A stretch of 64,000 nucleotides of DNA. It comes from a virus. The notes beneath the pieces are model-generated. The model had not been told where the DNA came from, did no database searches, and was given only the letters and a program-made list of their open reading frames with translations. Location: the IMG/VR virus record IMGVR_UViG_3300046673_000068, positions 1 to 64,000 of that record. The stretch is one strand, 5' to 3'. Below, one piece after another: positions 8,327-23,281 of the stretch (positions within the stretch are counted from its first letter, which is position 1; every line of letters starts with the position of its first letter). The translations under genes were made by a program, and so were the position numbers.

Positions 8327-8336
8327 CGCAGATGGG

Positions 8337-8354
8337 CCGGACAAACCAGTCCGG
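8337..8354 (+). other. Intergenic hairpin containing a degenerate dyad-repeat arm
   Basis: CCGGAC (8337-8342) pairs with GTCCGG (8349-8354). The right arm begins GTCCGGTTAATGCGG, a copy of the 15-bp repeat with a damaged right end. Confidence 0.45.
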
Positions 8355-8406
8355 TTAATGCGGCAGCGCCCGGTTCCAAATGCCGGGGCAACGCAGAGGA
8401 GGAACA

Positions 8407-18186: not shown

Positions 18187-18220
18187 GATTTTGCTAGGAA
18201 AGTTAGGAAAAGGAGAGCAA

Positions 18221-19030
18221 ATGTGCAAAGCATTTAGCGGGCTGGTCGATTTCAACGACAAAGTAACTTGGAAGTTGGGTGTGGATTCGCACGCGGACTT
18301 GGCCGAGCTCGGCGGGTACTTGGATACTCAGCTAGGGGAATTTGCCAAGTTCGAGTACACCCCCAAGAATGGCAACTACCTGAACCCCGATGAATGGGTT
18401 TTCCGCTGGGACGAGGACGTGTTGCCCCCGTGGTGCGGGACGAAGCAAAAGGAACTCGCTTTGGCCGCGCACAAAAACTGGCTCAAGCAGTTGGAGAAGT
18501 TTATCAACCGGCATCCTGTAGTACATCCGTTCAAGCTGCCCCCGCCTTCAATCGAGCGCAAGCACATTCTACTCCTCAAAAAGTGGGGCTCGGTTTGGGG
18601 CTCGGTTTGGGACTCGGTTGGGGACTCGGTTTGGGGCTCGGTTGGGGGCTCGGTTTGGGGCTCGGTTGGGGGCTCGGTTCGGGACTCGGTTGGGGGCTCG
18701 GTTCGGGACTCGGTTCGGGACTCGGTTTGGGGCTCGGTTTGGGACTCGGTTCGGGACTCGGTTTGGGGCTCGGTTCGGGACTCGGTTTGGGACTCGGTTC
18801 GGGACTCGGTTTGGGGCTCGGTTTGGGCGTACACCGGCTCCTTCTTCAAAATCCCGGTCTGGAAGTACGTCAAACACCCCAAGGGCAAGTATCCGTTCCA
18901 GCCCCTTGTTACCCTGTGGAATCAAGGGCTTGTGCCCTCGTTCGACGGCACGACCTGGAGGCTGCACGGCGGACCGAAAGCTGCTGTTTTGTTCTCCATC
19001 TCGAAGGCGGAGTTGGGGAAGTACAAGTAA
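18221..19030 (+). CDS. Tandem (W/R/G)(G/D)SV-repeat protein, 269 aa
   Basis: ATG after AAAGGAGAG; directly promoted from 18159. Residues 1-120 form a head ([20 protein letters not shown]), residues 122-201 are twenty four-residue units with alternating Trp, Gly or Arg, and the C-terminal 68 residues ([19 protein letters not shown]) form a tail domain. Similar SVW/SVR repeats occur in other phage and bacterial proteins of unknown function. Codon-level near identity of units points to slippage-driven length variation. Confidence 0.82.
18584..18823 (+). repeat. 12-bp tandem repeat, 20 units
   Basis: Unit TGGGGCTCGGTT and variants (GGGGAC, CGGGAC), in frame with the enclosing gene. Confidence 0.9.
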
Positions 19031-21235: not shown

Positions 21236-21408
21236 ACATCCTTGAAGCGGCGGAGTTCCTGATCCAAGGGAAGAAAATCTTTAGTGAACGTCCAAACTTT
21301 CCCGTACACCTAGACCCACGGGGGTTGGTGGTTTTCGACAGCGGGGAAGCCCCTCCCGTCCACATTCAAGACCTGTTGTCCGACAAATGGAGCGTGGTAG
21401 ATGAGTAA
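21232..21408 (+). CDS. Small paralogue-like protein, 58 aa
   Basis: ATGA-coupled. MNILEAAEFLIQGKKIFSER has the same pattern (aaxxL/MxxGkxvxR) as the preceding gene, so the two may be a tandem duplication. Overlaps the clamp-loader start by 8 bases. Confidence 0.62.
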   Translation: MNILEAAEFLIQGKKIFSERPNFPVHLDPRGLVVFDSGEAPPVHIQDLLSDKWSVVDE

Positions 21409-22357
21409 CCTGGCCGAAATTTTAGCCCCAACCCGATTGGACCAAGTCCTGGGCCAGGAACACGCCAAGAAAGCAATAGCGTCCTGGATCGAGAAGGACA
21501 ACTTCCCCCGCTGCCAGCTTTACACAGGGCCCGTGGGGACAGGAAAGTCCACTTTGGCCGGGATCGTAGCCCGGGCTTGCCAAGGACCTGGAAGTTGGGA
21601 AGGGTCGGACATCCGGCAGATCAACGCCGGGGTTGTGGGCAAAGTGGACGACATGCGGGCCTTGACGGAGGAAGCGAAAAGCGTTCCTTTCGTCGGGCGA
21701 TACCGCGTCTTTATCTTGGAAGAGGCTCAGCGGGTTACAGAGGCCGCAGCCGACGCCCTCCTAGTTCCAATGGAAACCTGTCTGAGTACCGTGTGGATTC
21801 TGACAAGCTCGGAACCGGCAAAACTACCGGCAGCAATCAGGTCCCGGTGCGCGGCAGCTACGTTCGATTTGAAGCCTTTGAACCGGGGGCAGTTAAGTTC
21901 TTTGGTACGCGACGTTCTTCTCCGAGAATCAATAGACACGGAGAGGGGCGAACCGGGTTTGACCGATTTCTTGTGGAAGCATGGGATCACAGCCCCGCGT
22001 GAAATCCTAGGTGTCCTCGACCAGTACCTGGCGGGCGTCCCCCTCGAAGAAGCAATCCACGGCTCTGAGCACGAGCCTCTGTACCCGGAAATTGCTACCA
22101 CTGTTCTGTCCGGGAACTGGACAAAAACCTCAGCTTTGCTCAAGAAGGTCCCGACCGGGGACTATCGGGCGATGGTGGCCGTGGTTTCTGCTAAACTGAG
22201 TTGGGCTCTGCTTGACTCCGACTTTGGACCAAGGGCCGACGCTCTGGCAACGTGCCTGGTCGGCCTCGGGAACTCCGGATTTGCTGACGGGGTTGCGTAT
22301 TCGAGTTTGAAAGGTTTGCTGTATAAGGCTTGCAAGGCGTTGGGGGCGAAACAATGA
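21401..22357 (+). CDS. AAA+ clamp loader ATPase, 318 aa
   Basis: Loads the sliding clamp on primed DNA. Residues 15-25 (LGQEHAKKAI) match the RFC/DnaX N-terminal box, Walker A is GPVGTGKST (43-51), Walker B VFILEEAQ (about 104-111), and SRC (about 148-150) carries the arginine finger. The C-terminal 130 residues form a helical collar-like domain. A single large-subunit gene with no small subunit visible. Contains a dyad-repeat variant near residue 237. Confidence 0.92.
   Translation: MSNLAEILAPTRLDQVLGQEHAKKAIASWIEKDNFPRCQLYTGPVGTGKSTLAGIVARACQGPGSWEGSDIRQINAGVVGKVDDMRALTEEAKSVPFVGRYRVFILEEAQRVTEAAADALLVPMETCLSTVWILTSSEPAKLPAAIRSRCAAATFDLKPLNRGQLSSLVRDVLLRESIDTERGEPGLTDFLWKHGITAPREILGVLDQYLAGVPLEEAIHGSEHEPLYPEIATTVLSGNWTKTSALLKKVPTGDYRAMVAVVSAKLSWALLDSDFGPRADALATCLVGLGNSGFADGVAYSSLKGLLYKACKALGAKQ
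22108..22122 (+). repeat. 15-bp dyad repeat, two mismatches
   Basis: GTCCGGGAACTGGAC inside the clamp loader gene, read as SGNWT. Confidence 0.65.
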
Positions 22358-22557
22358 TGTCCGTTTATAAGACCATCCACCATTGCCTGGATAAGCCCGC
22401 CTACTCCTCGCACGGGGAAGCTGTCCGGGCGATGTATCGGGCGGTCTTGCGCAAGAACTGCATCAACCCCCGAATCCACCCTTATGAATGTGCCTTCGCT
22501 CCACATTTTCACCTTGGAAAAACCAGACAAGAAAGACAGGAAAGGAAAGCAGCATGA
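22354..22557 (+). CDS. Hypothetical protein, 67 aa
   Basis: ATGATG start overlaps the clamp-loader stop. MSVYKTIHHCLDKPAYSSHG then a helical basic segment. No family recognised; ATGA-coupled to the next gene. Confidence 0.6.
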   Translation: MMSVYKTIHHCLDKPAYSSHGEAVRAMYRAVLRKNCINPRIHPYECAFAPHFHLGKTRQERQERKAA

Positions 22558-22760
22558 CCAGATTCATCGAAATTGAGCAGGATGGGAAAAAGGGGTATGT
22601 GAACGTGGACCACGTGGCCCTCGTGCTCCCGACTCAGATAATAGGAACCTCGGCGGTCGTCATTGACGCGCAACCCGCTTTGTCCCTTACCATCAAAGGC
22701 TCGGTCGAACAAGCGGTCACCCGGCTGGAAGGAAAAGATACTCTCCTCCTGGAAGCGTAA
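22554..22760 (+). CDS. Hypothetical protein, 68 aa
   Basis: ATGA-coupled, RBS AGGAAAG. MTRFIEIEQDGKKGYVNVDH begins a small beta-barrel-like fold; the C-terminus is a helix. No known family. Confidence 0.62.
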   Translation: MTRFIEIEQDGKKGYVNVDHVALVLPTQIIGTSAVVIDAQPALSLTIKGSVEQAVTRLEGKDTLLLEA

Positions 22761-22768
22761 AAAAGATG

Positions 22769-22796
22769 TTGCGCCGGGGCAGAAGTGTGGTATAAT
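22769..22796 (+). promoter_or_regulatory. Promoter of the structured RNA
   Basis: TTGCGC (22769-22774), 16-base spacer, TATAAT (22791-22796) in the extended form GTGTGGTATAATG. Transcription would start within a few bases of the first stem base (22799). Confidence 0.72.
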
Positions 22797-22798
22797 GA

Positions 22799-22970
22799 TT
22801 TTGGTGGTGATGATTGCGGGCGAGACTCCTTCGGGGTCTGATTGACAACGCAACAGCGGGACGCCCCGTGTACCGATTCAAGTCGGGCCACCACCAAAAA
22901 GTTTGTGGGGAAGCGCCGGAAGCCCCAAGCGGGCCGTAGCAGCGCCGGATTTCCCAAGCGGGCCCCACAA
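22799..22970 (+). ncRNA. Two-domain structured RNA upstream of the 96-aa gene
   Basis: Domain 1: TTTTGGTGGTG (22799-22809) is the exact complement of 22889-22899. Inside are AGAC-CC closed on a TTCG tetraloop with GG-GTCT (22823-22839) and CCGA/TCGG (22873-22886). Domain 2: TTGTGGGG (22903-22910) pairs with CCCCACAA (22963-22970) and encloses two 24-base direct repeats (22912-22935, 22941-22964), each able to form a small CCC/GGG hairpin. A promoter ends two bases upstream and the next gene's RBS AGGAGG follows at 22981. It could be a riboswitch-like leader or a free ncRNA. I cannot match it to a known RNA class. Confidence 0.72.
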
Positions 22971-22990
22971 TTCAAGTTTTAGGAGGAAAA

Positions 22991-23281
22991 ATGGTAACCG
23001 ATTTGCATGAGTTCTATGAGGAGCACAACGACGAGTTCCTCAAGTTCGACCGAGTCGAGAACAAGCTGTCTCTCCGGCCAGACCTTCACGCCTTTCTGCT
23101 GTTGGACAAGCTCCTGCCCGGGAAGGAGGACATCGTTGCCTCAGCAGAGCATGACGAAATCTATTTGGACGTGGATGTCGAAAAGCTGCTCGAAGCAGCA
23201 AACAAGGCGGAGTTGATTGATCTCCATCGTTGCGGAGTTCTTGTCTTCTCAGAATATGACAGCCTGGGAATGTTTGTTTAG
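22991..23281 (+). CDS. Conserved phage hypothetical protein, 96 aa
   Basis: ATG after AGGAGG, downstream of the structured RNA, which probably controls it. RPDLHAFLLLDKLLPG and the block SAEHDEIYLDVDVEKL resemble a widespread phage family of unknown function. Its TAG overlaps the next dyad repeat. Confidence 0.75.
   Translation: MVTDLHEFYEEHNDEFLKFDRVENKLSLRPDLHAFLLLDKLLPGKEDIVASAEHDEIYLDVDVEKLLEAANKAELIDLHRCGVLVFSEYDSLGMFV

What the first reader, a model, noticed from the sequence alone, without database searches (positions are those of the whole stretch)
22769..22990. A promoter-driven two-domain structured RNA of unknown class
A strong extended -10 ends two bases before an 11-bp perfect stem (22799-22809 with 22889-22899) enclosing a TTCG-capped hairpin and a CCGA/TCGG hairpin. 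A second 8-bp stem (22903-22910 with 22963-22970) encloses two 24-base direct repeats that each fold alike. It sits directly before the RBS of a conserved phage gene. It could be a tandem-aptamer riboswitch, a thermosensor or an anti-host ncRNA.
Basis: partly seen in the sequence, partly recalled or inferred. Interest (0 to 1): 0.8.

Follow-up and report, generated by a model that had tools for sequence, protein, structure and literature searches.

The report
Swappable tRNA-like phage leader RNA
Just downstream of a phage promoter lies a real, folded, non-coding RNA whose shape is kept by paired mutations, and related phages swap it for other RNAs closed by a similar outer stem, some with tRNA-like parts, independently of the neighbouring genes, so it is probably a free-standing RNA tool of the phage rather than a switch for the next gene.

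Summary
The anatomy is real: perfect extended -10, 11-bp stem, three-hairpin domain 1 (22799-22899), 8-bp-closed domain 2 (22903-22970) with two 24-nt repeats, then RBS and a 96-aa gene. Domain 1 folds better than shuffles (z -3.3); domain 2 does not (z -1.2), and its repeats do not fold alike. One homologue (L031) has the same domain 1: all 27 pairs kept, four with changes on both sides in three helices, internal loops identical, although its neighbouring genes are unrelated (24% and 18% aa identity). Conversely L004 has nearly the same promoter, RBS and genes (85% and 92% aa) but another RNA, whose two closing stems persist with compensatory changes. L027 and L032 show presence/absence. So the RNA is an independently exchanged module, not a sensor for the 96-aa gene. 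In relatives at the same spot the GGUGGUG closing stem abuts canonical tRNA T-arms (L063, L027); these phages carry large tRNA arrays with remodelled tRNAs. No Rfam or ARAGORN match. Best reading: a fast-changing tRNA-like phage ncRNA, probably acting in trans as a tRNA mimic; function not shown. Riboswitch and thermosensor are disfavoured; a 5'-end mRNA stabiliser is the main rival.

The parts
21401..22357 (+). clamp-loader gene (context anchor used to find relatives)
   Evidence: PHROG clamp loader E 2.8e-42; Pfam DNA_pol3_delta2
22554..22760 (+). p68, small upstream gene of unknown function; the RNA lies directly after it in six phages
   Evidence: relatives; no Pfam or PHROG match
22788..22796 (+). 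extended -10 promoter TGGTATAAT; predicted start about 22803
   Evidence: exact consensus; TGTGnTATAATG also follows p68 in relatives L004, L020, L021, L032 and, with small changes, L027, L031, L037
22799..22899 (+). RNA domain 1: multi-branched domain closed by P1
   Evidence: z -3.27; compensatory changes against L031
22799..22809 (+). P1 5' arm TTTTGGTGGTG (pairs with 22889-22899); probably transcribed from about 22803
   Evidence: kept in L004 with one two-sided change and in L031 with G-U changes
22889..22899 (+). P1 3' arm CACCACCAAAA
22814..22853 (+). P2 (22814-22818 with 22849-22853) with its internal loop 22819-22822 / 22840-22848, identical in L031
22823..22839 (+). hairpin 1 (UUCG type); two two-sided changes against L031
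22856..22869 (+). hairpin 2; one two-sided change against L031
22873..22886 (+). hairpin 3 CCGA-UUCAAG-UCGG next to P1, degenerate T-arm-like; one two-sided change against L031
   Evidence: canonical T-arms stand at this place in L063 and L027
22903..22970 (+). RNA domain 2, closed by TTGTGGGG/CCCCACAA; two two-sided changes in that stem against L004
   Evidence: energy not exceptional
22912..22964 (+). two 24-nt direct repeats (22912-22935, 22941-22964), found nowhere else in IMG/VR
22981..22986 (+). ribosome-binding site AGGAGG of the 96-aa gene
22991..23281 (+). p96 gene, no known family; its homologues elsewhere lack this leader

Best explanation
Domain 1 is a real, sequence-constrained non-coding RNA of a tRNA-rich phage group. 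It is made from its own extended -10 promoter and begins at or near its closing stem. It is an independently exchanged module: at this locus (after p68) related phages carry different RNAs closed by a similar GGUGGUG-type stem, in some cases stacked on a T-arm-like hairpin, with the interior replaced. The likeliest mechanism (inferred) is action in trans as a tRNA mimic, presenting an acceptor/T-arm-like end to a tRNA-binding host protein (a tRNA-targeting defence nuclease or a tRNA-processing or modifying enzyme), with the interior changing under an arms race. Being the first element of the transcript it may also protect the downstream mRNA. Shown: structure, promoter conservation, module exchange, tRNA-like parts in relatives. 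Inferred: expression, trans action, target.
For: Window vs L031: 27/27 pairs kept in both, 4 two-sided changes in 3 helices, none when the partner strand is slid by 1-3 columns; P2 and its internal loops identical, while the upstream protein is 24% and the downstream 18% identical. Window vs L004: promoter and RBS nearly unchanged, upstream and downstream stretches 88% and 90% identical in DNA, RNA interior replaced, both closing stems kept with two-sided changes. L027 vs L031: downstream gene 83% identical, RNAs unlike. L027 vs L032: p68 89% identical with similar promoter, RNA and following gene absent in L032. T-arms with 5-bp stem and canonical loop: one in L063, two in L027, against about 8 per 1.6 million strand-bases expected by shuffling. 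Similar promoter-proximal closed RNAs at other loci in G002 and G004, one followed by its own next promoter. Arrays of 20-31 tRNAs in relatives, with remodelled members missed by ARAGORN.
Against: Only one true homologue of domain 1 exists in the collections searched, so covariation rests on two sequences (column-shuffle control 28/500). The window's own T-arm-like hairpin is off by one from a canonical T-arm, and L031's loop is UUCGCG. No encoded NCCA end in register and no anticodon arm. No expression data. A trans role is not tested by anything here.
Confidence: 0.38

Rival explanations
1. A cis-acting 5'-terminal structure that protects the mRNA: the 5' triphosphate end is buried in P1, blocking RppH/RNase E entry; domain 2 insulates the RBS. 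The interior is free to vary.
For: Predicted start lies in P1; downstream genes differ between phages; closing stems are kept while interiors change.
Against: Internal-loop sequence is identical between window and L031 although the adjacent proteins are only 18-24% identical, more than stem stability needs; canonical T-arms in L063 and L027; in L031 the stem begins about 14 nt after the expected start.
Confidence: 0.3
2. A strongly remodelled tRNA (or a tRNA relic) that still enters translation or tRNA processing.
For: The group encodes tRNAs with lost D-arms or enlarged cores but with 7-bp acceptor, T-arm and NCCA; hairpin 1 of the window could be read as an anticodon arm with loop CCUUCGG.
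Against: No NCCA in register; L031 has a 4-nt loop there; ARAGORN finds nothing; Rfam tRNA does not match; 33 is C.
Confidence: 0.12
3. A riboswitch or thermosensor controlling the 96-aa gene.
For: Position directly before the RBS; conserved internal loop.
Against: Same RNA before an unrelated gene in L031; 96-aa homologues without it; RBS outside both closing stems (partly accessible); no terminator; no Rfam riboswitch match even at E 10.
Confidence: 0.07
4. Chance GC-rich structure without function.
For: Whole-leader energy z only -1.10; only two aligned sequences.
Against: Domain 1 z -3.27; four two-sided changes, no broken pair.
Confidence: 0.04

Closest known systems
Phage T4 stable RNAs C and D
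   Same: Small phage RNAs of unknown role from a tRNA-bearing phage, transcribed from the tRNA region (PMC3014915); tRNA-like features are recalled from memory. Possible relatives L080 and L068b lie in or at the head of tRNA arrays.
   Different: The window RNA has its own promoter next to replication genes, away from the array; no sequence relation was tested; swapping of whole interiors is not described there as far as I know.
Phage tRNAs that evade or neutralise tRNA-targeting defences
   Same: Would work like them if it is a mimic or decoy; literature: PMC10264068, PMC11555353 (titles and abstracts).
   Different: Those are genuine tRNAs with anticodons; this RNA has none.
5'-terminal mRNA-stabilising stem-loops (ompA 5' UTR type, from memory)
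   Same: Stem at the 5' end before the RBS.
   Different: Much larger, with conserved internal loops and T-arm-like parts in relatives.
DUF3800-VII RNA (Rfam RF02967)
   Same: Weak chance-level match of domain 2 (14.5 bits, E 5.7).
   Different: Far below the gathering score of 36.2.

Membership tests
tRNA | 7-bp acceptor stem followed by N and CCA | tested here: not met
   P1 GGUGGUG/CACCACC is followed by AAAA; no NCCA in register also in L063 and L027
tRNA | T-arm of 5 bp with 7-nt UUCRANY loop | tested here: not met
   window hairpin is 4 bp with 6-nt loop UUCAAG; canonical T-arms exist only in the relatives L063 and L027
tRNA | anticodon arm with U33 | tested here: not met
   window loop CCUUCGG (C33), L031 loop UCCC
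tRNA | recognised by ARAGORN or the Rfam tRNA model | tested here: not met
tmRNA | matches the tmRNA model or ARAGORN tmRNA search | tested here: not met
   none; only a 17-nt T-arm piece of L027 matches (11.3 bits against 47)
riboswitch | stays with one regulated gene or pathway | tested here: not met
   different downstream genes in window and L031; homologues of the 96-aa gene without the leader
riboswitch | expression platform (terminator or sequestered RBS) | tested here: not met
   no T-run after either domain; RBS outside the stems, mean P(unpaired) about 0.6
riboswitch | ligand binding | not testable with these tools
   needs in-line probing
T4 RNA C / RNA D | sequence or structure homology to RNA C or D | not tested
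   their sequences were not compared; a search of 50,697 phage records with this leader found nothing
any Rfam 15 family | gathering score | tested here: not met

The most novel reading that the evidence does not exclude
A tRNA-array phage group carries a rapidly diversifying class of promoter-proximal RNAs with a tRNA acceptor/T-arm-like outer half and exchangeable cores, inherited independently of neighbouring genes, serving as decoys or inhibitors against tRNA-targeting host proteins.
Probability: 0.22. Interest if true: 0.85.

Novelty: new variant of a known kind. Interest (0 to 1): 0.6.

Why it matters
Small stable RNAs of tRNA-bearing phages (T4 RNA C and D) have had no known role for decades. 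Here natural comparisons (same genes with another RNA, same RNA with other genes, RNA present or absent) show that such an RNA is selected as a unit of its own, which points to trans action and names a compact 100-nt element that can be expressed and tested. If it is a tRNA mimic, it extends phage counter-defence from tRNAs to tRNA-shaped RNAs.

Tried and rejected
Riboswitch and thermosensor for the 96-aa gene: rejected on gene context. Tandem-aptamer reading of the two repeats: they pair with each other and occur nowhere else. A covariance-model hit in L098 (24 bits, E 0.0024): lies inside a homing-endonuclease-like reading frame (my reading of its translation) and breaks 8 pairs, rejected. 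DUF3800-VII: chance level. Canonical tRNA or tmRNA: not found. A short reading frame ATG at 22810 (MIAGETPSGSD): its start codon is ACG in L031, so not conserved as a normal ORF. Homologues of the core in 84,980 bacterial and archaeal genomes and in GenBank phages: none. RecT-profile search of cellular genomes: none confirmed. General enrichment of closing stems behind all 304 extended -10 sites: weak only, so the class is a minority of promoters. The alignment of L004 domain 1 beyond P1 is ambiguous (its minimum-energy fold differs), so only its closing stems are used.

Full report
What is there. Window 22769-22990 lies between a 68-aa gene (p68, 22554-22760) and a 96-aa gene (p96, 22991-23281), in a replication and recombination region with a clamp loader before and a RecT protein after. 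The window is part of a 68-kb virus record. TGGTATAAT at 22788-22796 is a perfect extended -10. The -35 side (TTGCGC) is poor, so the simple two-hexamer scan did not list it. By normal spacing the transcript starts near G22803. It would then begin GGUGGUG, which pairs with CACCACC at 22889-22895. Domain 1 alone folds better than dinucleotide shuffles (z -3.27) and domain 2 does not (z -1.16); the repeats pair with each other instead of each folding alike.

Evidence that domain 1 is a functional RNA. A clamp-loader profile brought in 16 loci. In L031 the same RNA is found after p68. On the two-row alignment all 27 pairs of the proposed structure are standard in both sequences. Four pairs in three different helices have changes on both sides, and sliding the partner strand by 1 to 3 columns removes every one of them. 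With two sequences the column-shuffle control is modest (28 of 500 reach it). P2 and the internal loop (22814-22822 and 22840-22853) are identical, although p68 is only 24% identical between the two phages and the downstream genes are unrelated (18%). So the RNA is more conserved than its neighbours.

Evidence that it is an exchangeable module. (1) L004 has nearly the same promoter and RBS, p68 85% and p96 92% identical in protein and flanking DNA 88% and 90% identical, but nothing alignable inside the leader. Both closing stems persist with two-sided changes: P1 has U-A for G-C next to the shared GUGGUG/CACCAC; the domain 2 stem is UUGCGCG/CGCGCAA instead of UUGUGGG/CCCACAA. Its clamp loader and RecT are only about 50% identical, so the p68-RNA-p96 block itself has moved between phages. 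(2) L031 has the RNA with other genes. (3) L027 and L031 share the downstream gene (83%) but not the RNA. (4) L027 and L032 share p68 (89%) and a similar promoter, but L032 lacks the RNA and its following gene. The 96-aa gene has relatives without any such leader (L005-L007, L010, L022, L029). This speaks against a cis-regulatory switch for p96.

tRNA-like character. At the same locus L063/L037 has GGUGGUGG...GCCGGUUUGAAUCCGGC-CCACCACC, i.e. an 8-bp closing stem directly on a 5-bp T-arm, and L027 has GGUGGUG with two canonical T-arms and CGCCGCC. T-arm hairpins of this form are rare by chance: four in shuffles of half of the fetched phage pieces, both strands. These leaders were picked by synteny, not for T-arms. 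In the window the corresponding hairpin is CCGA-UUCAAG-UCGG, one nucleotide off a canonical T-arm, and in L031 the loop is UUCGCG; so the window RNA itself is at most T-arm-like. Rfam at permissive thresholds gives only sub-threshold tRNA-like echoes for the relatives (mascRNA and a tmRNA piece for L027, tRNA-Sec for L063) and none for the window. Other promoter-proximal closed RNAs in the same phages are L080 and L083 (each with two closed domains), L068b and a 145-nt RNA in L095 that is followed by the next gene's own promoter and is therefore a free-standing unit. Their kinship to the window RNA is one of layout, not of sequence. The phages carry arrays of 20 to 31 tRNAs (G002, G004, G008, G010; the record G011, which holds the window's own sequence, has at least 8). 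The arrays contain further tRNAs that ARAGORN misses, with 7-bp acceptor, T-arm and NCCA but a remodelled core, for instance an Arg-CCU without a D-arm.

Mechanism. Shown: conserved promoter, base-paired structure, independent exchange. Inferred: a trans-acting tRNA mimic whose core changes under an arms race (0.38). The main rival is a 5'-terminal stabiliser or insulator of the mRNA (0.30); identical internal loops in L031 argue against a purely mechanical role, but both could hold at once.

Comparison with the known. It is not a tRNA, tmRNA or Rfam riboswitch by the features tested. The nearest known kind is the small stable RNAs C and D of T4, transcribed from its tRNA region and of unknown role (PMC3014915). 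Phage tRNAs as counter-defence against tRNA-targeting systems are documented (PMC10264068, PMC11555353), which is why the mimic reading is preferred over other trans roles. I rate it a new variant of a known kind.

Noticed in passing
whole window, e.g. 106, 2120, 10419, 12868, 23281, 31063, 47284, 61973: About 50 copies (61 matches to GTCC-N6..8-GGAC, about 3 expected) of a 15-bp near-palindrome GTCC(A/G)G(A/G)TAATGGAC, in both orientations, roughly one per kb, often between a stop codon and the next RBS but also inside genes; also in relatives L020, L022, L027, L031. Resembles dispersed operator (stoperator-like) or gene-boundary sites; in L027 and L031 it stands between the RNA and the next gene.
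   Followed up: partly
L062, L067, L070, L082 (related phage records, leaders after TGTGnTATAATG): Two adjacent hairpins with complementary 6-nt loops that change together (CUGAUC/GAUCAG, CUGACC/GGUCAG, CCUCAC/GUGAGG), directly before genes that look like HNH or GIY-YIG endonucleases: a probable kissing-loop regulator of homing endonuclease genes.
   Followed up: no
L087, L094, L098, L105, L118, L129 (tRNA arrays of related phages): tRNAs missed by ARAGORN with normal acceptor, T-arm and NCCA but aberrant cores: Arg-CCU and Arg-CCG without a D-arm and with a long variable region, Ile-UAU with a 58-nt core, others with enlarged loops.
   Followed up: partly
8327-8386 +: Type-P5 twister ribozyme above the Rfam gathering score (46.9 bits) in a phage.
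   Followed up: no
18191-19030 +: Gene with a tandem (W/R)GSV / RDSV repeat segment.
   Followed up: no
L031 5457-5480: AGCTCAGTTGGT, the consensus tRNA D-arm string, overlaps the start of the closing stem of the homologous RNA; may be a relic of tRNA origin or chance.
   Followed up: no
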